This document shows positions 12,423-32,130 of a stretch of 64,000 nucleotides of DNA, in pieces (the first letter of the stretch is position 1; every line of letters begins with the position of its first letter). The notes under the pieces were generated by a model that ran no database searches, was not told where the DNA came from, and saw only the letters and a program-made list of their open reading frames with translations. The stretch is from the NCBI GenBank assembly GCA_009911715.1, contig CP047880.1, forward strand, positions 868,001 to 932,000. Direction: 5' to 3'. A program made the position numbers and the translations under genes. The DNA is from Methanomassiliicoccaceae archaeon DOK (lineage in GTDB: Archaea; Thermoplasmatota; Thermoplasmata; Methanomassiliicoccales; Methanomethylophilaceae).

Positions 12423-12453
12423 TTAAAGACCAATAATGAGTAAACGTCTTTAA
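12423..12453. promoter_or_regulatory. Inverted repeat over the tetR promoter, probable operator
   Basis: TTAAAGAC at 12423-12430 and GTCTTTAA at 12446-12453 form a perfect 8-bp inverted repeat with a 15-nt spacer. The right arm overlaps the TATA-like ctttaattc about 25 nt before the TetR-family start at 12476. A repressor bound here would block TBP/TFB access, so autoregulation is the natural reading. That is an inference from position and symmetry. Confidence 0.55.
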
Positions 12454-12475
12454 TTCGAAAACCGATTATCTTCTC

Positions 12476-13093
12476 ATGTCCAGGAAGGCTTACACCCGCG
12501 AGGAGCGCGAGTCCATACGCGACAGCATGATCCGTCGCTCGGTCAGGGTGTTCGCCGAGAAGGGCCTCAGGAATGCCAGTCTGGAGGACGTCTACGTCCC
12601 GGAGGGCATCTCCAAGACGTTCTTCTACACGTTCTTCCCCTCGAAGTCTTCCCTCATCGCCGAGGTGTTCAGCAGTCAGTCCTCGGAGATGCTGGATGTC
12701 CTGCGCAAAAACGTGTGGGACTACGGGGCAGTCAACGGGATGAGGGAGACGCTCTCGGATGTCCTGGACGGGAGGTGGTTCATCGCCTCCTTCGACGACC
12801 AGACGTATCTGCGGGACATCATGAGCGAGGAGGAGTTCAACGCGTTCAAGAACGATCGCATCGTCCTCTTCGCCGACATCCTGAATATCATCGGCGTGCC
12901 CGTCAGCAGACTCGACCCGCGCGTTTTCTACAACATGCTCATGTCCGTTGTCTGGACATGCTGCTCGCATCAGTCCTCCATGCCGTTCCTGTACGGGGAG
13001 GTCGCCCGCAGCTCGTCGGACATACAGATCGAACGTCTCGTCGAATACGTCTCCAGTCTGAGAGTAGACTCAGGTGTTTGCGACGGCCATTGA
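12476..13093 (+). CDS. TetR-family transcriptional regulator
   Basis: A 205-residue protein with a typical TetR N-terminal helix-turn-helix: IRRSVRVFAEKGLRNASLEDVYVPEGISKTFFYTFFPSKSSL, of which the recognition part is GISKTFFYTFFPSK, at residues 17-60. The C-terminal 140 residues are the variable ligand-binding/dimer domain. An inverted repeat covers its promoter. Its stop lies 13 nt before the first ankyrin gene, so it heads a four-gene operon (TetR, ankyrin, TPR-like, ankyrin) and is the best candidate regulator of that block. The ligand is unknown. Confidence 0.88.
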   Translation: MSRKAYTREERESIRDSMIRRSVRVFAEKGLRNASLEDVYVPEGISKTFFYTFFPSKSSLIAEVFSSQSSEMLDVLRKNVWDYGAVNGMRETLSDVLDGRWFIASFDDQTYLRDIMSEEEFNAFKNDRIVLFADILNIIGVPVSRLDPRVFYNMLMSVVWTCCSHQSSMPFLYGEVARSSSDIQIERLVEYVSSLRVDSGVCDGH

Positions 13094-13106
13094 TATCGGG
13101 GATAAC

Positions 13107-14324
13107 ATGATGGATGAATCTAAGATTAGGCAGGTCGAGATGGACCTGTTCCAGGACAGGACAGAGCAGGCGGTGCCCTCCGCGCTGGAGATGATCTCGG
13201 AGATGGACATGGATGACGACGACGAGGCCCTGGCGGCTTCAGGACTGTTGTCCAAGGTCCTGCGCACCGATGTCGCCTGCGACTTCGTAGAGAAACTGGC
13301 TGGAATCGGTTTCGACTTCGGGGTGAGGTTCCCGGACGGGGAGACGGTGACCACGATGTACGCCTCACGCGGGCTCAGCGACCCCGAGGTCTACAGGGCA
13401 CTGGTATCTGCCGGTGCTGACCCAACATCATGCAATCGCAACGGATCCAATGCTCTCCACATCCTTGCTTCTTTCGAGAAGTCCAGCTTCGCGAAGTCAC
13501 GCGAGACGGAGATGGCCGCCATCGCCGGAATCCCCGGGAACCCGTCTGATTGGATGGTCCCGAACGCGTACGGGGCGACGCCTCTGCATCTGGCGGTCCT
13601 GTTCGGCCACCACGAGCTGGTCACAGCGCTTCTGGACCTGGTCGAAGACGTCGATGCCATCGGCACCGAGGTGCGTTCCGGCTACGGACATGCCGTGGAC
13701 TTCAACGGAAAGACGCCTCTCGGTGTCGCCAGCCTCATAGGTGATGACGAGTCCGCATCGCTGTTGCTCGATCACGGGGCAGATCCCGGAATCACCGACA
13801 ACTCCGGACGCGTGGCCTCTCATTTCGCGGTGTCCCCACCTCCGGTGAGCATATGCAGGGGATGGGATTCGATCCCGGGCATGGAGGCCATCGTGGGCAG
13901 GAAGAGGGCCATACTGTCGAGGATCGGGATGCTGGATGCCACAGATGACGGCGGCAGAACGCCGCTCCTGCTCTCCCTGACCCTGTACAGATATCAGAAC
14001 GGCGGCCTGTCCGAAGCGCTGCTGGAGCTCGGCGCTGATCCCAACATCGCCGCCAACGACGGGACCACTCCCCTCATGGCTGCTGTGTCCAACGGGCACT
14101 CCTCAGCCGTGAAGGCCCTGGTGTCCGCCGGTGCGGACATGGACGCCACCGACGCCCACGGGAGGACCGCCCTCCACCATGCGATATCGTGGAGGGACGA
14201 GAAGTCGGCCAGGCTCCTGGTGAAGAAGGGTGCGAGGTTCGATATCCCCGACGACACGGGGAAGACGGCCGGAGAGATGGCGGCGTCCGCGGGCATGGAG
14301 TCCGTCATAGAGCTCATGGTGTGA
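13107..14324 (+). CDS. Ankyrin-repeat protein
   Basis: A 405-residue protein with an acidic helical N-terminus (about 90 residues, rich in Asp/Met) followed by ankyrin repeats with the TPLHLAVLxGHxELVxxLLDxGAD pattern, clear at about residues 150-240 and 290-400. A less regular stretch around 250 contains a Trp. No signal peptide or catalytic motif is seen. Two adjacent ATGs (13107, 13110) follow the tetR stop by 13 nt. The upstream GTG at 13074 would overlap tetR and is less likely. Ankyrin solenoids bind proteins. In bacterial polyimmunity loci ankyrin proteins can serve as immunity factors, which is a possible but unproven role here. Confidence 0.85.
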   Translation: MMDESKIRQVEMDLFQDRTEQAVPSALEMISEMDMDDDDEALAASGLLSKVLRTDVACDFVEKLAGIGFDFGVRFPDGETVTTMYASRGLSDPEVYRALVSAGADPTSCNRNGSNALHILASFEKSSFAKSRETEMAAIAGIPGNPSDWMVPNAYGATPLHLAVLFGHHELVTALLDLVEDVDAIGTEVRSGYGHAVDFNGKTPLGVASLIGDDESASLLLDHGADPGITDNSGRVASHFAVSPPPVSICRGWDSIPGMEAIVGRKRAILSRIGMLDATDDGGRTPLLLSLTLYRYQNGGLSEALLELGADPNIAANDGTTPLMAAVSNGHSSAVKALVSAGADMDATDAHGRTALHHAISWRDEKSARLLVKKGARFDIPDDTGKTAGEMAASAGMESVIELMV

Positions 14325-14328
14325 GGTG
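14323..14328 (+). promoter_or_regulatory. Shine-Dalgarno site GAGGTG deciding the start at 14335
   Basis: GAGGTG, complementary to the archaeal 16S rRNA 3' end, lies 6 nt before ATG 14335 and overlaps the stop of the preceding ankyrin gene. It favours ATG 14335 over the GTG at 14326, which sits inside it. Confidence 0.6.
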
Positions 14329-14334
14329 TCCGAC

Positions 14335-14814
14335 ATGGGATTCATCGACAACGGCACGAAATCGTCCGCTCCCGTAGACGGCACCGCTGCGTACCAGATG
14401 GCGGCAACAGGGGATCTTGCAGGCGCCTGGATAATCCTCTCGCGGGCCGACTCGTCGTCATCGGTAGACATTGTCTACAACAAGGCCCTGTGTCTCCGGG
14501 CCGCCGGCCGCAGGGACGAGGCCCTCGGTCTCGCCCGTGTCGCTTTCCGCCGTCTCACCGAGGGCGTTCCCCAACGGACCTTCGATCCCGTCGGGACCGC
14601 CCTGATATCTTCCATGGCCGCCCCGGGGCCCATGAACCCCGGGCTTCCTGCGGCCGACATGACCTACGCCGGTCTGCAGGCCAGATGGCTCTACTGCCTC
14701 TGTCTGGCGGACTGCGGCGAGGATGAGGAGTGCGCCCGGGTGGCCGCGCCCCTCGTACAGCTTGGTATCGTACCCATAACGAACAGAGGTGAACGAGTTG
14801 TCACAGATGGATGA
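14335..14814 (+). CDS. Small TPR-like helical protein
   Basis: A 159-residue helical protein. Residues 20-70 resemble tetratricopeptide helices (AYQMAATGDLAGAWIILSRA, VYNKALCLRAAGRRDEALGLAR). The second half has further helices with several Cys, and no signal peptide is present. The ATG at 14335 has a GAGGTG ribosome site at 6-nt spacing. It sits between two ankyrin genes. Its 3' end overlaps the next gene by 17 nt, so all three are translated together. It could be a small adaptor for its ankyrin neighbours. The function is not known. Confidence 0.7.
   Translation: MGFIDNGTKSSAPVDGTAAYQMAATGDLAGAWIILSRADSSSSVDIVYNKALCLRAAGRRDEALGLARVAFRRLTEGVPQRTFDPVGTALISSMAAPGPMNPGLPAADMTYAGLQARWLYCLCLADCGEDEECARVAAPLVQLGIVPITNRGERVVTDG
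14786..14791 (+). promoter_or_regulatory. Shine-Dalgarno site GAGGTG deciding a TTG start
   Basis: The same GAGGTG, again with exactly 6 nt to a start codon, precedes TTG 14798. The identical geometry upstream of the previous gene supports TTG as the true start, rather than GTG 14789 (inside the site) or ATG 14807. Confidence 0.5.
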
Positions 14815-15784
14815 GATGTTTCTCAACGCATGCAAGAACGGACAGAAGGGGGTCGCGCAGACGCTCCTGGCGAAGGGGGAGATCAACGTCAACAAGAGGG
14901 ACCCGATGGGGCTCACAGCCCTGCACTACGCTAGCCAGAAAGGTGCCCGCGACCTGGTATCGATGCTGCTCGAGAAGGGCGCCGACGCCTGCGCCTGCTC
15001 CAACGACAGTGTCACGCCGTTGCATATGAGCTCCAGGAGCGGGAACAAGGACGTCATACGCATGCTCATAGACGCAGGCGCCGACGTAAACGCCACAGAC
15101 CGCGGCGGAAGGACCCCGCTCATGGCCATGGCCTCGGAGGGGAAGGTCGATGCCGCGAAGATGCTGCTAGAAGCCGGGGCGGATCCCTCCATCGCAGACA
15201 ACGACGGGCACACGGTGATGGACATAGCCACATCCAAGGGACTCAAGGGACTCGTTTCCGCTCTGGCCGAAACGGGAGGATCGTCCGAAGCGCGCGACTC
15301 CGTCGGCAACACGCCACTTCACCAGGCCTGCTGGAACTCTCAGGGCGAGGTGGTCCGCGTGCTCGTCGACGGCGGGGCCGATGTGAACGCCCTCAACGAC
15401 GACGGTGAGAGTCCGCTGTTCCTCGCAGTCCACAGGGGCTCGCTCAACATCGTGGAGATGCTTCTCGAAGCAGGAGCGAATCCGTCCGCCAGCCTCAACA
15501 CAGGGGACCGCCCGCTGCATCTCGCAGCTTCGGCGGGCAACCTGTACATCGGAAGGGCACTCATAGGTGCAGGCGCCGATCCCGACTGCAAGAACGGCGC
15601 AGGCTCCACGCCGTTGATCCTGGCCGCCCGGAACGGCCGCAACGACTTCGTTTCGCTCCTTCTGGAGAAGGGCGCGGACCCCGATGCCGCGGACAACGAC
15701 GGTCGCACTGCCATGCATTACGCCTCGGAGGCCGGGTTCACCGAGATCGTGGAGATGCTCCTCATGGCTGGAGCGAAGGGCTGA
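14798..15784 (+). CDS. Ankyrin-repeat protein (about nine repeats)
   Basis: A 328-residue protein that is almost entirely canonical ankyrin repeats (for example TALHYASQKGARDLVSMLLEKGADA and TPLILAARNGRNDFVSLLLEKGADP, each 33 residues). It has about nine repeats and only 12 residues of cap. There is no signal peptide. The start is inferred as TTG 14798 from a well-placed ribosome site, overlapping the TPR-like gene by 17 nt. It is the last gene of the tetR-led operon and converges on the minus-strand ankyrin gene, whose stop is 20 nt away. It is a protein-binding solenoid of unknown partner. Confidence 0.88.
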   Translation: MSQMDEMFLNACKNGQKGVAQTLLAKGEINVNKRDPMGLTALHYASQKGARDLVSMLLEKGADACACSNDSVTPLHMSSRSGNKDVIRMLIDAGADVNATDRGGRTPLMAMASEGKVDAAKMLLEAGADPSIADNDGHTVMDIATSKGLKGLVSALAETGGSSEARDSVGNTPLHQACWNSQGEVVRVLVDGGADVNALNDDGESPLFLAVHRGSLNIVEMLLEAGANPSASLNTGDRPLHLAASAGNLYIGRALIGAGADPDCKNGAGSTPLILAARNGRNDFVSLLLEKGADPDAADNDGRTAMHYASEAGFTEIVEMLLMAGAKG

Positions 15785-15803
15785 GGTCGGTCGCCCAGAT
15801 TCC

Positions 15804-17258
15804 TCAGAGCCTTTCGAGGATCCATTTAACGACGCCCTGGCTGTCCGATTCCGTCGCGATGGCCAAGGCGTCCCTTCCCTTGGAGTCCCTGACGCTGAGG
15901 TCGGGTTCTGCGAAGTCGGAGATCGTCCTTATGATGTCCAGGCCCCCGTCGCGGGCGATGGAGGCGGCATGCATGACAGCAGTCATCCCCTCGCCGTCCC
16001 TGGCGTCCGCATCGGCTCCGAGCTCCATCAGCGTGCAAACGATGTTCTCGGATTCGGGTCCGGGGACCGCGCATGCCCTGATGAGCGGAGTGCGACCCGA
16101 CTGGTCGCGTGCACCCGTGTCCGAGCCTTCGGAAATCAGCGCATCGAACGCGATCCACCTCACCGACTTTCCGTCCGAAGTCCATCCCAGTCTGTCGTTG
16201 CCTGAGACAAAACACAGAGCGGAACCCTCGGAGCTGCCCACAGGGAGGTCCGGGGATCCCTGCGAACCGACAATGATCTTCAGCAGGGAGAGGAAGCTGT
16301 CTGAGCCCCTGTCGTTCTCACCGGTTCCGACCGTGGAGGACAGAGACACCAGCAGATGGTAGAGCGCGGTCCTGCCGTCCGATCCCGATGCGTATGCCGC
16401 CGATGCTCCTCCGCGGATGAGCGCCTCGGCAGCTGACAATGCCATCCTGCGGCAGGAGATCATCAGTGGCGTCATGCCCCTGTACTCGCACTCACGGTCG
16501 CAGAGTCCGTCCGGGTCGGCTCCTGAGGAGATGATCTGGTCGATGGCTTCGGCATCGTTCATAATCGCAGCCTGACTGAGGTCCATTCCACCCGAGATGG
16601 CAGACTCATCACCGTTCAGGAAGGCGGAAGTCAGCTTGATGCGGTTCTCAATGGCGAAATCCACCGCCTTCTTCCCTATCCTCGTCTCGGCCTCAGGGTC
16701 GATGCCGCAGCCGACCAGCCACTCGGCCATCCTGCGGCACATCCTGTCCTTCTCGGCGAACACCTCCGGATGGTTCCGGTAGTCGTAGTCGTATCTGGAT
16801 GCCCCATCGCACATAAGATGGAGTGCGTTCATCCCGCTGCTCTCTATCAAAGAGTCGCAGCGGACGCGCCTCTGTCCGATAACGGCAATCATCGGGCAGT
16901 TGTGCATGTCCGCGGCTATGTGATAGAAGCATCTGCCGGACTCGTCCCTCCTCGATGGCGGGCAGCGTCCCTCGAGAAGGATGTCGGTGCATTCCGCCAT
17001 CTTGGAAACACGTCCTTCCCATCTCTGTACCGCCAGGATGTGGAGCGGGGTCCTCCCGTAATCGTCGGTTGCCCCCGCGCGGAATCCTCTGGAGAGGAGG
17101 AGTTCCAGTGCCTCGGGGTCCACCTGTTTCGCCGCGATGTGGACCGCTGTGACGCCGTGGGGCCCCGTCTCGGAGGGATCCAAAGCGGAAACGACTCTGA
17201 GGACCTCCTCTTCCGATCCGCCTTGTCCGTAGGCCGATTCTAGGTCGTCCAGGCTCAT
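15804..17258 (-). CDS. Ankyrin-repeat protein coupled to a DUF1266 protein
   Basis: A 484-residue protein with irregularly spaced ankyrin repeats: VTAVHIAAKQVDPEALELLLSRG near 40, GRTPLHILAVQRW near 72, LMISCRRMALSAAEALIRGGA near 265 and GMTAVMHAASIARDGG near 430. Long non-ankyrin insertions separate them. The ATG at 17258 overlaps the TGA of the DUF1266 gene (ATGA), so the two are translationally coupled. The longer in-frame start at 17291 lies within that gene and is rejected. There is no membrane segment. Its insertions make it more divergent than the two plus-strand ankyrin proteins. Confidence 0.83.
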   Translation of the reverse strand: MSLDDLESAYGQGGSEEEVLRVVSALDPSETGPHGVTAVHIAAKQVDPEALELLLSRGFRAGATDDYGRTPLHILAVQRWEGRVSKMAECTDILLEGRCPPSRRDESGRCFYHIAADMHNCPMIAVIGQRRVRCDSLIESSGMNALHLMCDGASRYDYDYRNHPEVFAEKDRMCRRMAEWLVGCGIDPEAETRIGKKAVDFAIENRIKLTSAFLNGDESAISGGMDLSQAAIMNDAEAIDQIISSGADPDGLCDRECEYRGMTPLMISCRRMALSAAEALIRGGASAAYASGSDGRTALYHLLVSLSSTVGTGENDRGSDSFLSLLKIIVGSQGSPDLPVGSSEGSALCFVSGNDRLGWTSDGKSVRWIAFDALISEGSDTGARDQSGRTPLIRACAVPGPESENIVCTLMELGADADARDGEGMTAVMHAASIARDGGLDIIRTISDFAEPDLSVRDSKGRDALAIATESDSQGVVKWILERL

Positions 17259-18313
17259 GATCTTCCGCTCACCCAGGCGAAGTCCTTCCACGGCCCCTCG
17301 GTGAGCAGGTGCTCAACCGAGATCATGAGTCCGGCAATGTTCTCGTAGCACGCCTCGGGTCCGAAGGGGCACTTCCAGAACATGCTGCCGAACATGTACG
17401 ACTGGGCGTAGGATGTCCAGGAGTCGAAGAACTCCATGCATCCGTCGGCGATCTGGTCCAATATTCCCCATGCCTCCTCCTCGTCGATGAATCCCACGAA
17501 GTAGCCCCAACGGGTGACGTTCGCAGCCCTACCGAGATCCCAGCCGCGCAACATGGCGGGTCCGAACTGCCCCGCATAGGCCTCTGTGAATGCGAACCTC
17601 GCGTCGGAGACCGCACGGTCCTCGTCGTCCATGTCCTCCGTGTGGAGGTCCTCGGCGGTGCCGGATGCGGATATCACCTCGAGGGCATTCATGTAGTCCT
17701 TGGTGTGGCCTTCGACTATGAGGTAACGCAGGACGCCGATCAGGTCGTCTCTGTCCTCCACACCCCAGTAGTCGCTGAGGATGGAGAGGACCAGGTCCCT
17801 GCTGTCCTGGTCCCTCGGCTCCACATCGAGTCCGTCGAGCTTGTGATCGTTTAGAACGGAGATTATCCCTGTCAGAAGAACCTCGAACCTTCTCATGCGC
17901 TCGGGGTCGGCAGGTGCGGGATGTTCCTCGCTGAGGCTGGCCAGAGACGATATCGCAGTGACTATGTCCCCGTATCCGAACTCGGCTGGCACGATGTCGC
18001 CCAACACCTCTTCCGTGATGGTGTCTTCCTGCTCGCCGCCCAGAAGCTGTCCCATCTCCTCCTCGCCGTATCCGAGCTGTTCCAGGACCATCCTCGCCTG
18101 CGCGTCGGGGTCTACGACCCCGTCAGGACCGGCGGCACCCATCATCTGGGTGATCATCTGTATCTGCATCTCTGTCGTCTGATCGAGCTGGGAGCAGAGA
18201 TGCTCCACCATGCCGGGATCGGACGCGTACATCTGGCGGAACATATTCTTCTGGGTCTCCGCCTGTGCTCTTATCATCTGTATCTGCATCTGCAGGGGGT
18301 CATTGTCCGTCAT
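17255..18313 (-). CDS. DUF1266-domain protein
   Basis: A 352-residue protein. The N-terminal 60 residues are Gln/Met-rich helices (MQIQMIRAQAE twice-like), the middle is helical and acidic, and the C-terminal 180 residues match DUF1266: a WDLGRAANVTRWGYFVGFID block, then SWTSYAQSYMFGSMFWK. DUF1266 has no proven biochemical role. In bacteria it recurs near polymorphic-toxin immunity genes and secretion loci (family knowledge, not checked). The ATG at 18313 has a TATA-like tttatatc about 25 nt upstream, so the mRNA is nearly leaderless. It heads a two-gene operon with the ankyrin gene. Confidence 0.8.
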   Translation of the reverse strand: MTDNDPLQMQIQMIRAQAETQKNMFRQMYASDPGMVEHLCSQLDQTTEMQIQMITQMMGAAGPDGVVDPDAQARMVLEQLGYGEEEMGQLLGGEQEDTITEEVLGDIVPAEFGYGDIVTAISSLASLSEEHPAPADPERMRRFEVLLTGIISVLNDHKLDGLDVEPRDQDSRDLVLSILSDYWGVEDRDDLIGVLRYLIVEGHTKDYMNALEVISASGTAEDLHTEDMDDEDRAVSDARFAFTEAYAGQFGPAMLRGWDLGRAANVTRWGYFVGFIDEEEAWGILDQIADGCMEFFDSWTSYAQSYMFGSMFWKCPFGPEACYENIAGLMISVEHLLTEGPWKDFAWVSGRS

Positions 18314-18548
18314 GGGAAATGAATCGCCACGGGATGATATAAATCTTACATACTATTTTTAACTTTAAGTCTTTAATTTATTTCATTAATAATCAACTTC
18401 ATTCACATTGTTTACATAATTCATAAACCACTATTCATTGGATTCTTACGATTTGAGGGATTGGAACCACAATTGATGTTGGATTCAGAACAAGGTGTTT
18501 AAAGACTTTACAATTGTAAATGTATTTATTCTCTAATCCGGATTCAGA

Positions 18549-21500
18549 ATGGATCACATGGAACAGGAAGAATGTCATCTTCTTTACAGGAATTACTTCG
18601 ATATCCTCCCAATCGGTAGGAGAAAAACCCTGCTCGAGCAGGCCGGCAGGGAGAACGGCATGGAGGTTGTAGGATTCCGCAGGTTAGAGAGATGGGGAAT
18701 CTACACATTCACGGCCGAATACTCCAAAGATGGCGATAGGTACGTGTTCGTCCCGGGTTCCGAAGTCGTCCTCGGATGGAGTGGCGACTACAAGGAGATC
18801 GATCCGACAACCAGGAGCAACATCTCCATGGACCTTAAGTCCAGGGGATGTGACGAACCCGAGGAGATCCTTCGCCGCCTGACCACCCCGATGAGGCGCG
18901 TCATGATGCCACCGATGCTGGTGCAGGTGTCACCGATCAGTTTCGAAGGGACGTACGGGGATGCTGTGGCCGAGTTCTCCCTTCCAACTTCCGACGAATG
19001 GGAGTATCTGTGCGGAGGCGGCGCAAACACACTGTTCCAATGGGGCGATCGCTTCGACTTCAGGATGGGCTCGGACCACTACGAGGGGATGTCGGCAGGT
19101 CCTCGTCCATTGGAGGAGCCGAACTTCTTCGGCATCACCATAGCGGAGGATCCGTTCAGAGTGGAGGCGGTCTCGGCTGACTCCCCGACATTCAGGGGAG
19201 GGGACCTGGGCGGCAGTGTGCTGGCCGGCTACGGCCCGGTTATCGGGTACCTGCCGTGCTCCCCCCATTTCATTCCCGTGTACAAGGGGCCGGACGGTTC
19301 CGTCCCCAGCTCGTTCCTCGTCAGGAACGTCATCAGGCTGGATGTGCCTGAATGCGGGGGCGGAATGCAGACCGTCCCTTCGGAGGAGGCATCCTCAGGA
19401 CTCCTTGGGCCGGATGCGTTGTTCAACGACGACCGCCCGTTCCCTAAGGATTACGTCCTCTGCTCCGCCATGGCCGAGGACCCGGACATTCCGGACGGGT
19501 TCGCGGTCAGGGCCCGCCATATAATCCGCGGACTGACATATTGGATCCCAAGCGGGGAATGGACCCGTGAAGAACTGGAGAGCCAGCTCCGCTCACGTGC
19601 CGACAGCATATTGTCGCTGCAGGACGAGGTGGGATACAGGATGTCCCCCGTTGCCGCTGCCTCAGTGAGGGACACGTTCCGTGACATAATGTCATTCTAC
19701 GGCATTGACCTGGATCCCGACACCATATTTTCAGCCGAGGAGTGGAACGTCAGCAGAGGACCTGCAATCGATGCGGGCTCCGACTCGGAACTCATCGGCC
19801 AATGTGAGATCTGGCACCAGGAGGGGGAGAATCGGAGGATCATCGAGGCCATCGAGTCGCTTCCCGAATCCGAGAGGACCCCGGTTCTTGTCAGCGTCCT
19901 AGCCAGGGCCTACAACAACATCGGAGGGCCTGACGACCACGCCCCTTGTCGCAGGGCCGTAGAGCTGCTGGAGTCAGTCCGCGACAGTCTCGCTGACGAC
20001 GCACTTTGGAACTACCGCATGGGTTACGCTTACTGGCTGATGGACCGGGAACCCGACGCGATCCCGTATCTGAAGAGGGCGGTAGAGAAAGACCCTGATG
20101 ACGGGGACTTCAGGGAGATCCTCGAGGATTGCGAGGGTACACTCGCATTCCCCAGGTTCTCCCACTGCTTCCGCGAACGCGTCGAGACCGTTTGGAGGAG
20201 ATTCTCCGAAGAGATGCCGGAGATCGAGAGGCTGCTGCAGTATTCTGACAGGAACGCGGTGTCGGAGAGGATAGTCGACACCGTCTCCGGGATCATGTCC
20301 GAAGCCATCGACGGCATAGCGTTCGAGATAGGCTTCAACGGTGAGCGGTTCGAACTGTCCCTGAGCCCCGAGGCGGGTCGCGTAAGGCTGTTCGAGATCT
20401 GCGAACTCCTGAGGAGGGCTCCGGCGGAGGTCCGCGAGAGCTGGGACCTGAGGGCGGGAAAGATGCGCAAACCGGACTTCAAACTCAACACCGATGCAGG
20501 CGAGATCGGGGCTTCCGACATCTGGGTGGACATCGAACCCAAGGGTGAATACGTCTCACTGACCCTGCACTGCCCCAGGCTCTCCGACCTTATGGGAAGC
20601 GAAGAGGGCATGGTGTGGTGGGCAGTCTCCAGCATCATGGAGAGGGTCCTGGGGGAGATACCCGCGATGGCTGCCCTGGACGGCGTAACCGTAGTGACGG
20701 ATCCGCCCGGCGAGGGGGCATTGCCTCTCCTACAGCTCCCGTCCAGACTCGTGGACATGGGATTCAACCTCGAGGTGGACGCCCAGGGGTATCTTTCCAA
20801 CAGCATCACTTACAGGCCCGAACCCTTCGAGGATCCCGATGCGGACTGGAGGCTGGACATCTACTCAGGGACCTCCAGGTGCGCTCCTCTCGTGAACGGA
20901 TACCTCGCTCTTCAGAACGATGAGATGGACATGCTGCACCGCGACGGAGCCGTGGCAGGGTTCCTCGCGTACTCACTCGAATCCTTCGAGGGGGACGACC
21001 GCGCTGCCGAGATCATGGGGTTCCGCACATTGATCGAGCGGTACATCACAAAGAACGCCGGCAGGGATGCCGTCGAGTTCATCGGCGGAGCCACCGGGCT
21101 GCACCACGGGTACGTGGATTTCATCGCATGGGATCTGGAGGCTGTGATCAACGCGGCGAAGGAGTTCCTATCGGAGACGGACGTGGTCCGCGCTGGCTTC
21201 CACACATTCCGCCGCGGGCCGTCATCCGTGATCATCATCGACAGGACGGAGATCGGCTCTCCCGAATCCCCGATTCTGACCCCCGATGACATACAGAGGC
21301 TAGAATCCTATCTCGGAGAGGTTGACGGAAGGTACGGGGCGATGCTCAGCGACCTGTTCTCTACGCTGGTCAACGGCATCAACGACGGAAGGTTCATCAG
21401 CCGGCAGGCGGAGGCAGACCTGGAGGTGGCCCTGTGGTACTCGTTCGCATGCATCAACATCGGGGACTACGAACATTACTGGCAGGCGACCCGCTGGATG

Positions 21501-24136: not shown

Positions 24137-24781
24137 ATGGGATACGACCTCTACGCCGGACCTCTGGCCATGTGCTACGCGGGAGACTGGAACGAATACG
24201 ACCAGCAGGAGCCCTTCGACAGGGACGAGCTTCTTGCCGCCGTTTGTAGATGGCGCGACTCGATCAACCAGGGCCTCCCCGACGGAGGGGTCAGATGGGA
24301 GGAGGGCTACGGCAGACAGTACTACTACGGGAGGGTCGGACTCGACGCACTGGGGACCCTCTTCCTCAGGGTTGCCTGCCACATAACCGGCGATCAGCTC
24401 CCGGTCACCGTGACCAGCGGATGGAGGTTCTACGAGGACCCGATCATCGAGAAGGCCATGACGGGCAGCGTCAGCATGCCGTCGGCTCTCATCGCCCAGA
24501 TGTGGATACCTTTCGGTCGCATTGGCATGTTCCAGTGCCCCGGGCCCACCGGCGAGAAGATCAACGTCAGCACGACGGCGACCCTCAGGAAGGACCTGGA
24601 CGCCATCAACCAGGCGTTCTGGAACGCAGACGGCCCCACCATCGAGGGCTGGTCCTACGAGGTCCCAAGCGGCGAGGGGGAGCTGGACACCGACAGCCTC
24701 TCCAGGTACGCATTCTCCATCTTCTGGAAGGTCCTGTCCTTCGCGGAGAGGGGGACCCAGCCGATCGTCGTCGGCCACTGA
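24137..24781 (+). CDS. Unknown 214-residue protein beginning MGYDLYAGPL
   Basis: A soluble mixed alpha/beta protein that I cannot assign to a named family. The N-terminus (MGYDLYAGPLAMCYAGDWNE) is a distinctive block rich in Tyr/Gly, followed by a Trp-containing helix and a central WRFYEDPIIEKA segment. The overall look resembles small stand-alone proteins of bacterial immunity-type loci, but this is an impression only. It lies 63 nt after the TPR gene and 56 nt before the DUF4261 gene in the same direction. There is no signal peptide, and codon use is like its neighbours. Confidence 0.72.
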   Translation: MGYDLYAGPLAMCYAGDWNEYDQQEPFDRDELLAAVCRWRDSINQGLPDGGVRWEEGYGRQYYYGRVGLDALGTLFLRVACHITGDQLPVTVTSGWRFYEDPIIEKAMTGSVSMPSALIAQMWIPFGRIGMFQCPGPTGEKINVSTTATLRKDLDAINQAFWNADGPTIEGWSYEVPSGEGELDTDSLSRYAFSIFWKVLSFAERGTQPIVVGH

Positions 24782-24837
24782 GCCGTCCTCATCGGGGCCG
24801 CGGTAGGTTAACATCGTAGGACGTACTATCGACACCG

Positions 24838-26640
24838 ATGTCTGGAAAAGTTCGCGATTGCATGGCGGATTCGGTGCTGGGTCCCGAGGAGATCGAAACC
24901 CTCGAGTCCTTCAGCGACGGAAGCACCACCGACTGCTCGGGGATGCTCGAATACCTGGGGCACTTCATATCCAGGGGCGTGTCGGAGGGCCGTTTCACCG
25001 AGAAGCAGGCGCATCACGACCTGGGGATAGCCCTGTGGGTGGCCTACGCCTGCAACAACCTGGACGACTACGAGCACTACTACACGGCGTCCGAGTGGCT
25101 CTCGCGTGTGGAGGACATCGCATCGGGATGCGGGGTGTGGTACTACAGGTACGCGAACGCCCTGATGTACTGCGGGAAGCCCGGCAGGGCGCTGGAGTAC
25201 TGCGAGAGAGGGGTCAGGGAGGACCCGGACTACCCGTGGAACTGGCTAACGCTCGGTCGTCTGAGAGCCCATTTCGGGGACCGTCGCGGCGCATACGAGG
25301 CCGTGGCGAAGGGTCTGGCCCTGGTCCCGGACGACCATGAGTTCCTCACGCTCAGGGAAGACATCGACAACGGACGCACCCTCGAGGAGATGGAGCTCCA
25401 CTACATCGATCCCGACGACGACTTCCAACTGGCCAACGGCGACCGGACCAATCCTGAGTACGTTCTCAAGCACCTCGCCGTGGACGGGATCGTCTGCGAC
25501 AGGCCCGCCCTGGACAGACTGAAGGCCAGGCTAGGCATCACGGGGTGGTCGGCGGACCATCCTTACTGCACATTCCTCCGCGATTTCCGCGGAGGAGCCG
25601 TCGTGGTGACCCTAACGATGAACGAGGCACTGGCGTCGAAGAAGGACCCCGACAGCGTCGCGAGGATACTGGAGTCCCTGGAATCCATGGATGCTGAGGC
25701 GAGGCGCCATCTTTCAGAGGACTCCGATCCCGGCGCGCTACAGCTGTACGGGGTCAGCATCGGGCCTTTCCTGGATGTCAAGCTCTCATATTCCTCCCAT
25801 GGTACCGAGGAGGTCCGCACCGTGGACTTCGACAGCGACCTGGACATCGTCACCCATTCCGACGGCGGCCCCTACGCCGCGATCATCCTGCTTTCATCCG
25901 ATTCTTGGAACCCCGAGGCCATACTGTCCGACCTGAGGTCCCAGTGGGGGATAGGCCTGAAGGACGCCGAGGTCAGCGACGACTCCGTCATAGGGATGCT
26001 GGGCGGGGACATAGTCGCTATCAGCCTGATGCACGCCAGGGTGCCGGGCGAGGAGGCGGAGGAGAACGCCTCCAACAACTATCTCTGGCCCGGCGCCGTA
26101 GAGGCGGCCAGGGCCCACACCGCCCATCTTGTCGTAGCCCTCGTCAACCACGGAGGGGATCCATTGGACTGCGGACTCCTCTTCACCAAGATCGTGGTAT
26201 CCTGCGCCAGGCAGCCAAACGTCCTCGGGGTGTACAACTGCGGGACGGTCTTCGAGCCAGCCGCGTACATCGAGGCCGCCAAGGCCCTCAAGACCGGCGA
26301 CATACCCCTGGAGGACATGGTGTGGTTCGGGATGTACCGCACATCTGAAGGGATAAACGCCTACACCGTTGGGATGCGCGCGTACGGCAGGGACGAGATG
26401 GAGGTGATCGGCGCGAAGGACGCACCGGCACGCGTCGCCGCATTCCTATATGACGTCGCGTACCACATACTCTTCAACGGGACGACCCTCAGGGACGGCG
26501 ACACCATTGGGTTCTACGACGACCAGTCGCTGACGGTCAGGAGAGGCCAGGGAGTCTCCGTGGACGGCATTTCACTGCGGATCGAGTACCCCGAAGGGGG
26601 TCCCGACGATGGTCCCGGGTCCTCGGAAATCGACCAATGA
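24838..26640 (+). CDS. TPR plus DUF4261 protein, paralogue of part of the 1489-residue protein
   Basis: A 600-residue protein. Residues 14-190 are a helical TPR-type region closely similar to residues 910-1090 of the giant protein upstream (shared YRYA/SxALMxCG, GDRxGAxxAVAKGLxLVP, and a following YIDPxxDxxL block). After a middle domain (about 210-345), the C-terminal 260 residues match DUF4261: AHTAHLVVALVNHGGDPLD, NVLGVYNCGTVF, YTVGMRAYGRDEMEV and LRDGDTIGFYDDQ. DUF4261 has no known activity. The ATG at 24838 is about 26 nt after a TATA-like aggttaac. The two genes likely arose by duplication with different C-terminal domains attached. Confidence 0.83.
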   Translation: MSGKVRDCMADSVLGPEEIETLESFSDGSTTDCSGMLEYLGHFISRGVSEGRFTEKQAHHDLGIALWVAYACNNLDDYEHYYTASEWLSRVEDIASGCGVWYYRYANALMYCGKPGRALEYCERGVREDPDYPWNWLTLGRLRAHFGDRRGAYEAVAKGLALVPDDHEFLTLREDIDNGRTLEEMELHYIDPDDDFQLANGDRTNPEYVLKHLAVDGIVCDRPALDRLKARLGITGWSADHPYCTFLRDFRGGAVVVTLTMNEALASKKDPDSVARILESLESMDAEARRHLSEDSDPGALQLYGVSIGPFLDVKLSYSSHGTEEVRTVDFDSDLDIVTHSDGGPYAAIILLSSDSWNPEAILSDLRSQWGIGLKDAEVSDDSVIGMLGGDIVAISLMHARVPGEEAEENASNNYLWPGAVEAARAHTAHLVVALVNHGGDPLDCGLLFTKIVVSCARQPNVLGVYNCGTVFEPAAYIEAAKALKTGDIPLEDMVWFGMYRTSEGINAYTVGMRAYGRDEMEVIGAKDAPARVAAFLYDVAYHILFNGTTLRDGDTIGFYDDQSLTVRRGQGVSVDGISLRIEYPEGGPDDGPGSSEIDQ

Positions 26641-26712: not shown

Positions 26713-26856
26713 ATGACATCAACCAAAGCAGCCGCAGCGATAGTTATCGTCGCCGTGCTGGTCGTCGCAGTCGGGGCCTACGCGCTCCTCAACCATGGCG
26801 GCGGCAACGGCGGCGGGGACACGGATGCACCAGTGGCACCATCGGTACGACTGTAG
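26713..26856 (+). pseudogene. Detached N-terminal signal-anchor of the frameshifted surface protein
   Basis: ATG 26713 opens a 47-residue frame with a clear hydrophobic anchor (AAAAIVIVAVLVVAVGAYALL) followed by a Gly-rich linker. It ends at TAG 26854-26856. A sequence in another frame continues directly with repeat-like text and joins the reading frame of 26976-28271. The most economical explanation is a one- or two-base indel in or just after the GGC/GGGG-rich tract at 26798-26818 that separated the anchor from its ectodomain. A TATA-like element (taaaacctaac to gttatttc) precedes the ATG. A sequencing error cannot be excluded. Confidence 0.6.
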
Positions 26857-28336: not shown

Positions 28337-28352
28337 GTTGTCGTATGACAAC
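28337..28352. promoter_or_regulatory. GTTGTC-N4-GACAAC inverted repeat upstream of 28403 gene
   Basis: A perfect 6-bp inverted repeat with a 4-nt spacer lies 50 nt before ATG 28403, just upstream of AT-rich promoter-like DNA (ttagctatctgctaaattaatttag). This fits a dimeric regulator site. The cognate regulator is unknown. Confidence 0.35.
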
Positions 28353-28402
28353 TATTGATAAATAATGGAGATTTAGCTATCTGCTAAATTAATTTAGATA
28401 CA

Positions 28403-28795
28403 ATGAAACAGACAATCACCAGAGACGAGTTGGCAGCGAAATTCACCGAAGGCGTGGAACGCAAGAGGAGGGAACAGCAGGATTTCATCCTCAAAGCCTT
28501 CGAGAATCCCGAAAAGGGAAAGGTCTACCAGGAGATCGCAGACTTCCTTGACTATGAGATCAGGTACTACCGCCTGGGTGCGGCATACTACTCCGACGAG
28601 TTCGAGTCCATGACGTCCGAGGAGGATGATGACCTGCTGTACCTGACGGCAGTCAGTGAGCCGTCCCCGAGAGCCTACGCGCAGTACCTCAGGGAGATAG
28701 ACCCCTCCGTCAGAGCTGACGAGAAGATCACCCACTCCTGTCTGAAGGAGCTCAAGTCGGCTATCGGCAGGGTGATGGGGAGCGGCATGGTATGA
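28403..28795 (+). CDS. Small charged helical protein
   Basis: A 130-residue soluble protein with a basic helix (FTEGVERKRREQQDFILKAF), a Tyr-rich middle (YEIRYYRLGAAYY, exact DYEIRYYRLGAAYY) and an acidic loop. I recognise no family. It is preceded by AT-rich promoter DNA and an inverted repeat. Its TGA overlaps the ATG of the next gene (ATGA at 28792-28795), giving translational coupling. It heads a three-gene set (28403-30944) of helical/coiled-coil proteins of unknown role. Confidence 0.7.
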   Translation: MKQTITRDELAAKFTEGVERKRREQQDFILKAFENPEKGKVYQEIADFLDYEIRYYRLGAAYYSDEFESMTSEEDDDLLYLTAVSEPSPRAYAQYLREIDPSVRADEKITHSCLKELKSAIGRVMGSGMV

Positions 28796-29538
28796 TCTTC
28801 GACCGTGAGGACATCGCCGTCCTCAACAGGGTCATGGTCCGCAAGGGCATCGAGACCGCCGCAGTCTCCCACAATCCCGGGCTCACCGACGCGCAGCGGA
28901 TGATGATATCGGGCGAACTTGCAAGGGACATCTCCAGATGCCAGCTGATGATCGCAGTCGGAATGAACGACTTCTCCGACATAGAGAGACAGCTGGAGTC
29001 ATTCGAGGAGGATATGTCCGCGATGCCCCCGACCCTCTACACGGCGTACATGGGAACCATGTCTGCTGATGACAGCGACGACGAGGGGCAGTACATCTGG
29101 CTGCTGGCGATGATGATCTCCAACATCGGCCTGATCCGCCGCGGACTCGGGTTCGTCGACGCCCTCGCAGCGGCTGAACCGGTGCTCTCGCAGACCGAGG
29201 TGCTGTCGATAAAGTCCTTGCGCACGACCCTGGATGATGTCTGTCGCAGGTCCGAGGCAACGGAGGGCGACCTTTTCGACTCCGGACTGTACGCCGACGC
29301 GTTGGCCAGGGAGTGCTCGCTGCTCCTGAGAGTGAACTCCGGCAAGGATGTCGACAGCGGTGAGATATCCGACCTGTTGGACGACATCGGACGCTTGGAC
29401 CCGGAGGAGTTCGAGCGTGTGTTCGGACCGGACCTGGGTGCCGATGCCATGGCTCTTGCCGCCGAGGTCGCGGAACCCCGCGGAAGTCACATGGCCATTC
29501 TGTGCGCCAGGTGCATTCTCAATTCCCTGCTGTCCTGA
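28792..29538 (+). CDS. Unknown helical protein coupled to 28403 gene
   Basis: A 248-residue, mostly helical, acidic protein with no motif I know. Notable stretches are LARDISRCQLMIAVGMNDFSD near 45, an acidic DDSDDEGQYIW near 97, and a Cys-containing C-terminus (ILCARCILNSLLS). It is translationally coupled to the 130-residue protein by an ATGA overlap, which implies similar expression and possibly a complex. A T-run (cccttttttt, 29549-29557) after the stop could terminate transcription before the next promoter. Confidence 0.7.
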   Translation: MIFDREDIAVLNRVMVRKGIETAAVSHNPGLTDAQRMMISGELARDISRCQLMIAVGMNDFSDIERQLESFEEDMSAMPPTLYTAYMGTMSADDSDDEGQYIWLLAMMISNIGLIRRGLGFVDALAAAEPVLSQTEVLSIKSLRTTLDDVCRRSEATEGDLFDSGLYADALARECSLLLRVNSGKDVDSGEISDLLDDIGRLDPEEFERVFGPDLGADAMALAAEVAEPRGSHMAILCARCILNSLLS

Positions 29539-29585
29539 TCCGGTCTGACCCTTTTTTTAATTATATGTACTCCGATACGGGGCAC

Positions 29586-30944
29586 ATGTGGGATGCAGAC
29601 CTCGTTTCGAGAGTCAGGGACAGGAAACTCAATGAGATCATGATCTTCGCCTCCATGGCCAAGATCGACAGCTCAAACATCGACACTTACATCGACATCA
29701 TAGTCAGCCTCGGCGACGACGTGGACGCCTGCGACACCCTTCTGGACACCGACGGCGAGTCGGAGATCGCACTCGACTCCATCGACGCTCCGGAGTACTG
29801 GGACCGTCTCTCCCTGGGTGAGCAGGCGGACGAAGACGCCTTCAACGCCATGAAGACCAGCCCGTACAGCGAGGATTCGGTTCCGGAGGATATCGTGGAC
29901 TACGTCAGGCAGATCATTTCTGAGGCCGCCGAGTCTCTGAAATCCTCCGGAGACGGGGTCAGCAAGGATGCCTTCGACGCCGTGAAGGACGAGTTGAGGA
30001 TCGTCAGGCAGAGGAACGAGGATCTCTCAAAGGACCTGGACTTCAGGATGACGGAGAACGCCACCCTGTCGGAGGACCTGAAGACCGCCCTGTCCGAGAA
30101 GGACGAGCTCGCCGCCGAGGTGGAGAGGCTGAAATCCGTGATCAAGGACATGGAGGCATCCGAAGCCCAGATGGAGACAATGGCCGAGGAGCTCTCTGAG
30201 GCGAACGAGCAGGTCGGAATCCTCAGGACGAAGGTCGAGGAACTCCAGAACGAGGTCTCCGCCAGGGATGCCGACATCGTCTCCCTGACCGAGGAGAGGG
30301 ACGCCGCCGTCCTTGCTAACTCCGAGCTCCACAGCGAGATGGAGGAGCTCATGGACGAATCTTCAGCGATGGTCTCCGACGAGTTCATCGACGAGGCGGA
30401 TCAGGAAGCAGCTGACACCGAGGCAGTCTCGGAGCCGCAGGTAGCTCCGACGACAGACGCGTCAGAACCGGACTCCGTGGAGTCTGCCCCATCAGAAGCG
30501 GATGTCCCCGCCGAGGACTGTCCCCATGAAGACCACATCGCCGAAGTGACCGAGGCTCCTGCCGTCGACAGGATCCTGACCGACGCCCAGCGCGAGGTCG
30601 TCGAATCCGCCAAGAGGATGAAGGATGCGAAGATCGACGAGTTCATCGACAAGTCGATGTCGGGACAGGTTGACGAGACCGCCTGCGACAACATCGTCGC
30701 GTTCCTCAAGGTGGACATCAGCATCTGCGACGCTCTGCTCGGAATGGATTACAGCAGTCTCGACAGCATCCTCGACGGATTCAGGAGGATCCTCTCCATC
30801 ATCGACGAGGCCCCCGAGCCACACAGTCAGAACATCTACTCCAGGTCCCTGACCCCGGAGCAGTCGCTCATCGAGTACGGATACAACAAGGTGATCGAGC
30901 ACATCCAGGATGTCATGCTGAGAAGATACGCGAACATGCTGTGA
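29586..30944 (+). CDS. Long coiled-coil protein with similar domains at both ends
   Basis: A 452-residue protein. The centre (about residues 130-275) is a continuous coiled coil (LKTALSEKDELAAEVERLKS). A Pro/Ser/Asp-rich linker follows (about 280-340). The N-terminal part (KLNEIMIFASMAKIDSSNID...ISLGDDVDACDTLLDTD) and the C-terminal part (KIDEFIDKSM...KVDISICDALLGMD) share a pattern ending in D-x-x-x-CD-x-LL-x-x-D, suggesting a duplicated helical module. ATG 29586 is chosen because taattatat at 29556-29564 lies about 25 nt upstream. ATG 29565 is in frame but inside that box. The role is unknown. Confidence 0.72.
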   Translation: MWDADLVSRVRDRKLNEIMIFASMAKIDSSNIDTYIDIIVSLGDDVDACDTLLDTDGESEIALDSIDAPEYWDRLSLGEQADEDAFNAMKTSPYSEDSVPEDIVDYVRQIISEAAESLKSSGDGVSKDAFDAVKDELRIVRQRNEDLSKDLDFRMTENATLSEDLKTALSEKDELAAEVERLKSVIKDMEASEAQMETMAEELSEANEQVGILRTKVEELQNEVSARDADIVSLTEERDAAVLANSELHSEMEELMDESSAMVSDEFIDEADQEAADTEAVSEPQVAPTTDASEPDSVESAPSEADVPAEDCPHEDHIAEVTEAPAVDRILTDAQREVVESAKRMKDAKIDEFIDKSMSGQVDETACDNIVAFLKVDISICDALLGMDYSSLDSILDGFRRILSIIDEAPEPHSQNIYSRSLTPEQSLIEYGYNKVIEHIQDVMLRRYANML

Positions 30945-30946
30945 TC

Positions 30947-31585
30947 TCAGATGAAATCCAACACGCCCCCGGCGTCCTCCGTGAACGGTATCCCGTTCTG
31001 ACGGCAGATGTCGGGGGTGAAACCGTATCCGAAGGTGACGGCGACGAACCTCGTGCCGCTCTCCCTAGCACCCCTCAGGTCGTTGGGCGTGTCCCCGACC
31101 ATGAGCGTCTTCTCCGGCTCCGCCTCCGCGGCGTATATGCATCTGTCGATCAGATCAGATTTGGACAGAAGCCCAAGGTCATCTGCCCCGCATACGTCCA
31201 CGAAATAACCGTCGAGCCCCCAATGGGAGGCCAGTTGCTTGGCGTACTCGTCGGGCTTCATGGTAGCCACCCCCATGGGGATCCCTATGTCGCGTAATGC
31301 ATCCAGCGTCTCCTGCATCCCCGGGAACAGAACGGCCTCCAGATACCCCTCCCTGCCGTAGAACTCCTTGAACAGCTCAGCCGCACCGATCGCTTCCTCG
31401 CGGCCGATGCCATAGAGCTTCGCCATGTCGTCGATCAGGGATCCTCCCTTCACAGCGTATAGTGCCTCACGGGATGGCTCCGGCACTCCCAGCTCGTGTG
31501 CGACATGGAGGAAGGATTTGATTATACCCGGCGCTGTGTTGGATAGCGTCCCATCCATATCGAATACCACGAGCTCTGTGTCCAT
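30947..31585 (-). CDS. HAD-superfamily phosphatase (phosphoglycolate phosphatase-like)
   Basis: A 212-residue haloacid-dehalogenase phosphatase of subfamily IA. Motif I is FDMDGTLSNT (nucleophile Asp), motif II is GVATMKP, Lys is in LSKSDLI, and motif IV is MVGDTPNDLRGA. The cap domain is the helical C1 type, as in Gph/PpaX. It hydrolyses small phosphate esters. The exact substrate (phosphoglycolate, pyrophosphate or sugar phosphate) cannot be fixed. The start at 31585 is 48 nt from the divergent start at 31633, and the AT-rich tcgatttagata between them probably serves both promoters. It converges with the coiled-coil gene, with 2 nt between stops. Confidence 0.88.
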   Translation of the reverse strand: MDTELVVFDMDGTLSNTAPGIIKSFLHVAHELGVPEPSREALYAVKGGSLIDDMAKLYGIGREEAIGAAELFKEFYGREGYLEAVLFPGMQETLDALRDIGIPMGVATMKPDEYAKQLASHWGLDGYFVDVCGADDLGLLSKSDLIDRCIYAAEAEPEKTLMVGDTPNDLRGARESGTRFVAVTFGYGFTPDICRQNGIPFTEDAGGVLDFI

Positions 31586-31632
31586 GCAGAGTGCAAAGAG
31601 TCGATTTAGATAACTGTTGCCCAGGCTATCTC

Positions 31633-32130
31633 ATGAAATACATCGATTCCATTCTCATACTCATGAGGGAGCCGCCCAGCGACATCGGAGAACCGCAGGA
31701 GGAGTTCTGTGACAGAATAGCGGAGATCTTCGACGACCCTGATGGGAGATACGAGGTCCTTGACAGGAACCTGTCCGACGACCCGTTCGAGCCCGACATC
31801 GAGGTTATAGACTCAGACGAGTGGGCATTCAACATCCTCTGCTATTATGTCGAGGACACACCATCCGACGGTATAGTGGAGATCTTTCCCAGAACATTCG
31901 GTATGAGGAAATGGGTTCAGGACGACTCGGACAGGCCGTCTTTCCTTGCCCTCGGTGTGGGAGGAACCCCCGATCATCCAGAGTACCTCTATTTCGCCCG
32001 TTTCTTCCGTTTCACAGATGTTCATTTCATTCTAGACGAAGGACGTGACATGCTCATCAATTGGATGAGACCGGAATTCTTCGACAAAGTGATCAGGGAT
32101 GATTTCGAGCGGATCTTCAGTCCAAGATGA
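31633..32130 (+). CDS. Unknown 165-residue soluble protein
   Basis: An acidic mixed alpha/beta protein, with many Asp/Phe/Tyr residues and a W-containing GMRKWVQDD segment, and no signal peptide. ATG 31633 lies about 25 nt after a TATA-like gatttagata, so I prefer it to the upstream in-frame codon at 31591. It matches no family I can name. Its size and composition resemble small immunity-type proteins of bacterial accessory regions, which is an impression only. It is the last gene before a 0.77-kb AT-rich non-coding stretch. Confidence 0.68.
   Translation: MKYIDSILILMREPPSDIGEPQEEFCDRIAEIFDDPDGRYEVLDRNLSDDPFEPDIEVIDSDEWAFNILCYYVEDTPSDGIVEIFPRTFGMRKWVQDDSDRPSFLALGVGGTPDHPEYLYFARFFRFTDVHFILDEGRDMLINWMRPEFFDKVIRDDFERIFSPR

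What the first reader, a model, noticed from the sequence alone, without database searches (positions are those of the whole stretch)
12423..32130. 20-kb accessory block of ankyrin, TPR, DUF1266, DUF4241 and DUF4261 genes resembling a polyimmunity locus
Within 20 kb there are three ankyrin proteins, several TPR proteins, a DUF1266 protein, a mosaic ending in DUF4241 and a paralogue ending in DUF4261, plus several small unknown proteins, headed by a TetR regulator. Sel1 proteins lie nearby at 3.9-6.5 kb. In bacteria these families recur beside polymorphic toxins as immunity or accessory genes. No toxin domain or secretion gene is visible here, so it may be a set of orphan immunity proteins protecting a gut archaeon from bacterial toxins, or an unknown stress system.
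Basis: inference. Interest (0 to 1): 0.68.

Follow-up and report, generated by a model that had tools for sequence, protein, structure and literature searches.

The report
Bacterial-type toxin-immunity island in methanogen
A gut-type methane-making archaeon carries a gene island, under a shared switch, built from the same parts that gut Clostridia appear to use to neutralise protein toxins from neighbouring cells; this suggests, but does not yet prove, that archaea need protection from such toxins too.

Summary
The genes are real and the domain calls were right: three ankyrin proteins, DUF1266 (4e-32), a 1489-aa mosaic ending in DUF4241 (3e-62), a TPR-DUF4261 paralogue (6e-18) and a TetR regulator. 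The polyimmunity reading holds for the variable part (12423-23018 and 24137-26640), not the whole block. The TPR gene at 23159-24073 is a family-wide core gene (74 of 102 genomes, same synteny); so are the Sel1 genes at 4858-6452.

The same modules form unambiguous immunity proteins elsewhere. A second TetR operon in this genome carries SUFU, Imm33, DUF4261, DUF4253 and DUF4241. A congeneric MAG carries Imm68, Imm33, SUKH-3 and DKNYY beside DUF4241, with up to 91% DNA identity to gut Clostridia. Clostridial arrays join TetR, DUF4241, DUF1266, ankyrins and TPR-SUFU proteins. In one complete genome the ankyrin pair is followed by SUFU instead of DUF1266.

A dyad, TTAAAGAC-N15-GTCTTTAA, ends 22 bp before TetR; across 31 genomes of the genus it occurs only upstream of TetR at three such loci.

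Best explanation: a TetR-controlled, domesticated orphan polyimmunity island acquired from gut Firmicutes. Toxin neutralisation and targets are untested.

The parts
12423..12453 (+). Inverted repeat TTAAAGAC-N15-GTCTTTAA, predicted TetR operator overlapping the TetR promoter
   Evidence: The pattern occurs in only 3 places in 31 genomes of the genus, all upstream of TetR of such loci; reversed control 0. Same position (21-23 bp before start) in 7 of 9 archaeal TetR loci.
12476..13093 (+). TetR-family regulator heading the operon
   Evidence: TetR_N 3.4e-6; 46% identical to the TetR of the second locus in this genome, 32% to Clostridial TetR beside DUF4241
13107..14324 (+). AnkA, ankyrin-repeat protein
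   Evidence: Ank_2 1.4e-49; in 5 genomes of the genus next to TetR or AnkB
14326..14814 (+). TPRs, 162-aa TPR-like protein
   Evidence: No Pfam hit above cut-off; distant (16-22%) homologues beside the AnkB/AnkC/DUF1266 genes in genus g9, one of which matches TPR_2 at 1e-4
14789..15784 (+). AnkB, ankyrin-repeat protein, the most conserved member of the cassette
   Evidence: Ank_2 6.9e-86; 15 of 102 genomes, 51-86% identity; directly followed by SUFU in G049
15804..17291 (-). AnkC, ankyrin-repeat protein
   Evidence: Ank_2 4.8e-31; adjacent to AnkB and DUF1266 in genus g9 in several gene orders
17255..18313 (-). DUF1266 protein
   Evidence: PF06889 4.3e-32; relative inside a Clostridial DUF4241-DUF5713-DUF1266-SUFU operon (31-33%); in G255 between TetR and a Tdi1-type immunity gene
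18549..23018 (+). Big, 1489-aa polyimmunity-type mosaic: FGE-like module (1-400), Big_M (TPR plus unknown domain, 405-900), Big_T (TPR region, 900-1240), DUF4241 (1288-1472)
   Evidence: modules recur fused to SUFU, SUKH, Imm33, DUF4261, DUF4253 in archaea and Clostridia; the DUF4241 end is missing in G077, G074 and G075
23159..24073 (+). TPR304: family-wide core gene inside the block, NOT part of the immunity island
   Evidence: 74 of 102 family genomes, synteny with PdxK-YgiQ
24137..24781 (+). U214, unknown small protein, probable immunity-type protein
   Evidence: No Pfam hit; relatives inside the G051 and G255 immunity arrays and in a TetR-SUFU-U214 locus
24838..26640 (+). P600, TPR plus DUF4261 protein
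   Evidence: PF14080 5.5e-18; same module in polyimmunity proteins of the second locus and of Clostridia; directly behind a TetR gene in G051 L040
26713..28271 (+). Sec431, membrane-anchored repeat protein with a frameshift relative to four relatives; linked by synteny only
28403..30944 (+). U130, U248 and coiled-coil CC480; subclade-specific neighbours, linked by synteny only
   Evidence: no relatives in bacterial arrays

Best explanation
The variable part of the block is a domesticated, orphan polyimmunity island. A TetR repressor is predicted to bind the dyad over its own promoter and keep the TetR-AnkA-TPRs-AnkB operon low until an unknown signal relieves it. The proteins (the ankyrin pair with DUF1266; the FGE-TPR-DUF4241 mosaic; TPR-DUF4261; probably U214) are predicted to bind and block protein toxins delivered by neighbouring microbes. 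TPR and ankyrin parts would act as scaffold or binding surface, and the DUF4241, DUF4261 and FGE-like parts as toxin-specific heads that are gained, lost and shuffled. The set derives from gut Firmicutes by horizontal transfer, with at least two separate archaeal entries, and the window copy has taken on archaeal composition. Shown here: domain content, modules shared with recognised immunity proteins, patchy distribution, nesting among gut Firmicutes, the dyad at TetR promoters. Inferred: repressor action, toxin binding, identity of the attackers.
For: Second TetR operon in the same genome with SUFU, Imm33, DUF4261, DUF4253, DUF4241. G076 has an unambiguous SUFU/Imm33/DUF4241 operon exactly where the window has Big, beside AnkC-DUF1266. 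G051 array with Imm68, Imm33, SUKH-3, DKNYY, up to 91% DNA identity to Pseudoflavonifractor. Bacterial DUF4241 neighbours are led by SMI1_KNR4, SUFU, SUKH_6. Clostridial operons with TetR, DUF4241, DUF1266, Big_M-SUFU. SUFU replaces DUF1266 behind AnkC-AnkB in G049. TetR-DUF1266-Tdi1 in G255. Tree with archaeal sequences among gut Firmicutes. Dyad only upstream of TetR of such loci. Rare in the phylum.
Against: No domain in the window itself is a named Imm family; DUF1266, DUF4241 and DUF4261 are DUFs linked to immunity by company. The AnkC/DUF1266 pair runs against the other genes. AnkA and AnkC have no specific relative in the bacterial arrays, and AnkB matches only at the generic ankyrin level (24%). 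The bacterial sample is the 80 best hits, biased to close relatives. The strongest congeneric array (G051) is a MAG. No toxin, delivery route into archaea, or expression data.
Confidence: 0.66

Rival explanations
1. The repeat proteins are eukaryote-like adhesion or host-interaction factors, as TPR, Sel1 and ankyrin counts in these archaea have been read before.
For: Ankyrin, TPR and Sel1 proteins of Methanomassiliicoccales were counted among adhesion-type eukaryote-like proteins (PMC7883539).
Against: The ankyrin and mosaic proteins keep company with SUFU, Imm33, Imm68, SUKH and Tdi1-type immunity genes. Only Sec431 shows an obvious membrane anchor.
Confidence: 0.1
2. A proteostasis or stress-response module: DUF1266, ankyrin and TPR proteins as scaffolds or chaperone partners under a TetR sensor of small molecules.
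For: TetR control with a dedicated dyad; TPR parts match co-chaperone TPR folds; DUF1266 also occurs in E. coli (control). From my own knowledge, E. coli DUF1266 genes lie near an Hsp70/J-protein locus.
Against: Patchy distribution and domain shuffling between sister species; SUFU in the DUF1266 slot in G049; immunity company in bacteria.
Confidence: 0.12
3. Immunity, but to toxins made by archaea (own or related methanogens) rather than by bacteria.
For: Archaeal contact-dependent toxins with paired immunity genes exist in haloarchaea (PMC11566945). Immunity genes move between these methanogen species (99.2% DNA over 840 bp between G000 and G075).
Against: No RHS-repeat protein in this genome or its genus and no toxin-like gene beside the loci; the closest relatives are in gut Firmicutes. 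Other toxin carriers were not searched.
Confidence: 0.12

Closest known systems
Heterogeneous polyimmunity loci and polyimmunity proteins (Zhang et al. 2012, PMC3482391)
   Same: Several unrelated immunity-type domains as tandem genes and as multi-domain fusions, no toxin inside, variable between close relatives, ankyrins and SuFu among the parts
   Different: Archaeal host; TetR-controlled with a dedicated dyad; large TPR-scaffolded fusions; one convergent gene pair; families DUF4241, DUF4261, DUF1266 not named there; extended loci were reported only from four bacterial groups
Acquired interbacterial defence (AID/rAID) systems of gut Bacteroidales (PMC12247911, PMC10470768)
   Same: Orphan immunity genes in arrays acquired horizontally in the gut; SUKH and Tdi1-type members also appear in the archaeal and Clostridial relatives of this island
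   Different: No adjacent tyrosine recombinase in the window; archaeal host; toxin protection not shown
TetR-headed DUF4241/DUF1266/SUFU arrays of gut Clostridia (found here: L104, L135, L139, L144, L156)
   Same: Homologous TetR, Big_M/Big_T, DUF4241, DUF1266, DUF4261 and ankyrin components
   Different: Different upstream motif at TetR; no AnkA/AnkC orthologues; window copies diverged to 31-59% identity
VARTIG modules of Thermococcales (PMC8416519)
   Same: Archaeal, variable, shuffled loci compared with polymorphic toxin systems
   Different: Centred on large Ig-domain proteins; no SUFU, Imm, DUF4241 or DUF1266 parts in what was read

Membership tests
Polyimmunity locus | Four or more tandem genes of immunity families | tested here: inconclusive
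   Window: ankyrins, DUF1266, DUF4241, DUF4261, linked to immunity by company. Second locus and G051/G076/G255: SUFU, Imm33, Imm68, SUKH-3, Tdi1 met
Polyimmunity locus | No toxin gene between the immunity genes | tested here: met
   No toxin family among block proteins in Pfam
Polyimmunity locus | Same orientation and small gaps | tested here: inconclusive
   TetR-AnkA-TPRs-AnkB gaps 13, 1, -26 bp; AnkC-DUF1266 run the other way; a core gene (TPR304) interrupts
Polyimmunity locus | Content differs between close relatives | tested here: met
   DUF4241 end present or absent on Big; G076 has a different operon at the same site; 26 of 31 genus members lack DUF1266
Polyimmunity locus | Often adjacent to a recombinase | tested here: inconclusive
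   Two serine recombinases at 37296-38935, 5 kb away and conserved at that site in relatives without the cassette; an integrase lies next to the G051 array
Polyimmunity protein | Several immunity domains in one polypeptide | tested here: inconclusive
   Big combines FGE-like, Big_M, Big_T and DUF4241; only in relatives are the same scaffolds fused to SUFU, SUKH, Imm33
Polyimmunity protein | Neutralises toxins by binding | not testable with these tools
   Needs expression and binding assays
rAID/AID system | Orphan immunity genes with a linked tyrosine recombinase | tested here: not met
   No tyrosine recombinase found in the block; serine recombinases only, 5 kb off
Known anti-phage defence systems | Full-length PADLOC model hits | tested here: not met
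   Only ankyrin repeats match repeat stretches of PDC-M72A and similar models; Big, P600 and DUF1266 have no hit

The most novel reading that the evidence does not exclude
Gut methanogens have repeatedly captured a TetR-controlled polyimmunity operon from gut Clostridia and turned it into a resident island with an archaeal cassette (two ankyrin proteins plus an exchangeable DUF1266 or SUFU protein). This would imply that archaea are regular targets of bacterial protein toxins in the gut, and that DUF4241, DUF4261, DUF1266 and the FGE-like module are unrecognised immunity families.
Probability: 0.5. Interest if true: 0.76.

Novelty: new variant of a known kind. Interest (0 to 1): 0.64.

Why it matters
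Immunity superfamilies of polymorphic toxin systems were described as mostly absent from archaea (PMC3482391). If the island works as its relatives suggest, archaea in the gut are under attack by protein toxins, concrete toxin-immunity pairs become testable, several DUF families gain a function class, and whole defence arrays have passed from bacteria to archaea recently.

Tried and rejected
Rejected: the whole 20-kb block as one unit (TPR304 and Sel1b/c are core genes). Rejected: known phage defence. No RNA family, tRNA or tandem repeat in the window. No solved-structure relative by sequence for DUF4241 or DUF1266. Big_M folds well (pLDDT 89) but only its TPR part finds PDB matches. The Big_N model is poor (pLDDT 59); its FGE likeness rests on sequence profiles (5e-5 to SUMF1). 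RHS repeats were searched as a toxin carrier: none in the genus. The dyad was not seen upstream of the Clostridial TetR genes, which share a different sequence there. The held papers never name DUF4241, and none names two of the three DUFs. The review of Makarova et al. 2019 on archaeal polymorphic toxins was not held, so prior mention there cannot be excluded. Relative evolutionary rates were looked at only as identities and not pressed.
Full report
WHAT IS THERE. The window is positions 868001-932000 of a single-contig 1.889-Mb genome. From left to right: a TetR gene (12476-13093), AnkA, a small TPR-like protein and AnkB on the + strand with gaps of 13, 1 and -26 bp; AnkC and DUF1266 on the - strand, overlapping by 37 bp; the 1489-aa 'Big' protein; TPR304; U214; and P600 (TPR plus DUF4261). 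Downstream come a membrane-anchored repeat protein, three unknown or coiled-coil proteins, a HAD phosphatase and a 179-aa unknown.

THE BLOCK IS COMPOSITE. TPR304 has an orthologue in 74 of 102 genomes of the family, 40 of 45 good ones and 9 of 14 genera, and in nearly all the fetched loci it lies next to PdxK-YgiQ. These are resident genes, not immunity accessories. The rest is patchy: DUF1266 is in 5 of 31 genus members and 14 of 147 genomes of the order, DUF4261 in 10 of 102, DUF4241 in 3 of 390 sampled Thermoplasmatota and SUFU in 7 of 390.

THE SAME MODULES MAKE RECOGNISED IMMUNITY PROTEINS. In the same genome at 552-559 kb a TetR paralogue heads three genes: a 1333-aa protein (Big_M, TPR, DUF4261, DUF7832, DUF4253), a 639-aa protein (SUFU 1e-41, DUF7832, Imm33 2e-13) and a DUF4241 protein. 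In congeneric G051 (record title UBA71) the TetR locus continues into a protein with Imm68 (7.5e-43) and Imm33 (7e-36), then about a dozen small genes including SF0329, SUKH-3, DKNYY, DUF5713, DUF4241 and the FGE-like module. In G076, beside AnkC-DUF1266 and where Big stands in the window, lies a 1529-aa protein with Big_M, Big_T, DUF4261, DUF7832 and DUF4253, followed by SUFU-DUF7832-Imm33, DUF4241 and the FGE-like module as separate genes. Big's modules therefore occur fused and unfused at the same site. In sister species G077, G074 and G075 Big is conserved but lacks the DUF4241 end.

THE ANKYRIN-DUF1266 CASSETTE. In genus g9, AnkB (51-55% identity), AnkC (27-28%) and DUF1266 (17-24%) lie side by side in six genomes, in several orders and orientations, in some with a homologue of the small TPR-like protein. 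In single-contig genome G049 the order is AnkC-AnkB-SUFU with 12 bp and 1 bp between the genes: SUFU takes the slot that DUF1266 has in G034. In G255, of another family, TetR is followed by DUF1266 and then by a gene with the T6SS immunity protein Tdi1 C-terminal domain (4e-16) and a GAD-like domain (1e-15). A third TetR locus in G051 is TetR, a SUFU-related gene and a relative of U214. These arrangements tie the ankyrin genes and DUF1266 to immunity, by company.

ORIGIN. A scan of GTDB genomes with the DUF4241 family returned 80 loci: four archaeal and 76 bacterial, nearly all Firmicutes of gut origin with a few Actinobacteria and one Synergistota, at 55-71% identity (the list is the 80 best and so biased to close relatives). 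The bacterial genes mostly sit in long co-directional arrays. Among 106 non-redundant neighbours the commonest families apart from ABC/AAA ATPases are SMI1_KNR4, SUFU and SUKH_6, with DUF1266, DKNYY and DUF7832 recurring. Some loci have the archaeal anatomy: L104 (TetR-DUF4241-DUF5713-ImmNTF2-...-TPR protein), L135 (DUF4241-DUF5713-DUF1266-[Big_M, Big_T, SUFU]), L139 (a 1780-aa Big_M-type protein with SUKH, DUF4261, SUFU, DUF7832 and DUF4253). Internal control: window genes outside the island have almost no matches in these bacterial loci, whereas Big_N, Big_M and DUF4241 match 22-75 of them. In the DUF4241 tree five of eight archaeal sequences lie among gut Firmicutes and at least two origins are forced; the window copy is on a long branch and its exact place is unsure. 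G051's array is up to 91% identical in DNA to Pseudoflavonifractor over 2.9 kb; genes orthologous to those beside the own second locus are on the same contig, which argues against contamination but does not exclude an assembly error. The own second locus and G075 share 99.2% DNA identity over 840 bp where neighbouring genes are 70-88% identical, so exchange seems to continue among the archaea.

REGULATION. TTAAAGAC-N15-GTCTTTAA ends 22 bp before the TetR start (12423-12453). In 31 genomes of the genus the pattern (one base relaxed in each arm) occurs at only three places, each upstream of the TetR of such a locus, and the reversed control never. Seven of nine archaeal TetR genes carry it at 21-23 bp, with 0 of 500 shuffles reaching the score; L040 and G255 do not. 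The right arm lies where the TATA element of a leaderless archaeal transcript would be, so part of its conservation may be promoter; the inverted left arm is what suggests a repressor site. Repressor action is inferred.

MECHANISM AND CONFIDENCE. Most likely (0.66) this is a domesticated, TetR-controlled orphan polyimmunity island whose proteins bind and block incoming toxin domains. Content, company, distribution, ancestry and motif are shown; neutralisation, toxin identity and attackers are inference. Rivals are adhesion-type repeat proteins (0.10), a proteostasis or stress module (0.12) and immunity to archaeal rather than bacterial toxins (0.12).

NOVELTY. Zhang et al. (PMC3482391) found extended polyimmunity loci only in certain proteobacteria, bacteroidetes, firmicutes and actinobacteria, and most immunity superfamilies absent from archaea. 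Functional precedents are orphan immunity (rAID) genes of gut Bacteroidales (PMC12247911) and haloarchaeal toxin-immunity pairs (PMC11566945). Earlier work read TPR, Sel1 and ankyrin proteins of these archaea as adhesion-type factors (PMC7883539). I rate this a new variant of a known kind. A key review on archaeal polymorphic toxins was not held, so prior mention of immunity genes in this order cannot be ruled out.

Noticed in passing
L022:9692-13702 (own genome C1, about 569.7-573.7 kb): A 1336-aa Cas9 (Cas9_REC 7e-126, Cas9_PI 2e-56, HNH) in this archaeal genome, about 10 kb from the second immunity locus. Cas9 is rare in archaea to my knowledge.
   Followed up: no
window 57352-59245: AAA ATPase and TOPRIM/DUF4435 gene pair resembling PARIS AriA-AriB (PADLOC 6e-26 and 1e-15).
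   Followed up: no
window 26713-28271: The membrane-anchored repeat protein Sec431 is split by a frameshift between its signal/anchor part and its body, compared with four intact relatives; sequencing error or broken gene.
   Followed up: partly
window 37296-38935: Two tandem serine recombinases, kept at the same site (beside TM188 and SDR) in several genus members.
   Followed up: partly
L085:1-840 against L021:18609-19448: 99.2% DNA identity between two species at the DUF4241 gene, with neighbouring genes at 70-88%: recent exchange, or a binning problem in the MAG.
   Followed up: partly
window 18549-19749: The N-terminal module of Big has a formylglycine-generating-enzyme-like core (LPTxDEWEYLCGGG...WGD; profile match to SUMF1 5e-5, weak to a Treponema variable protein). 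Enzyme or binding fold is unknown.
   Followed up: partly
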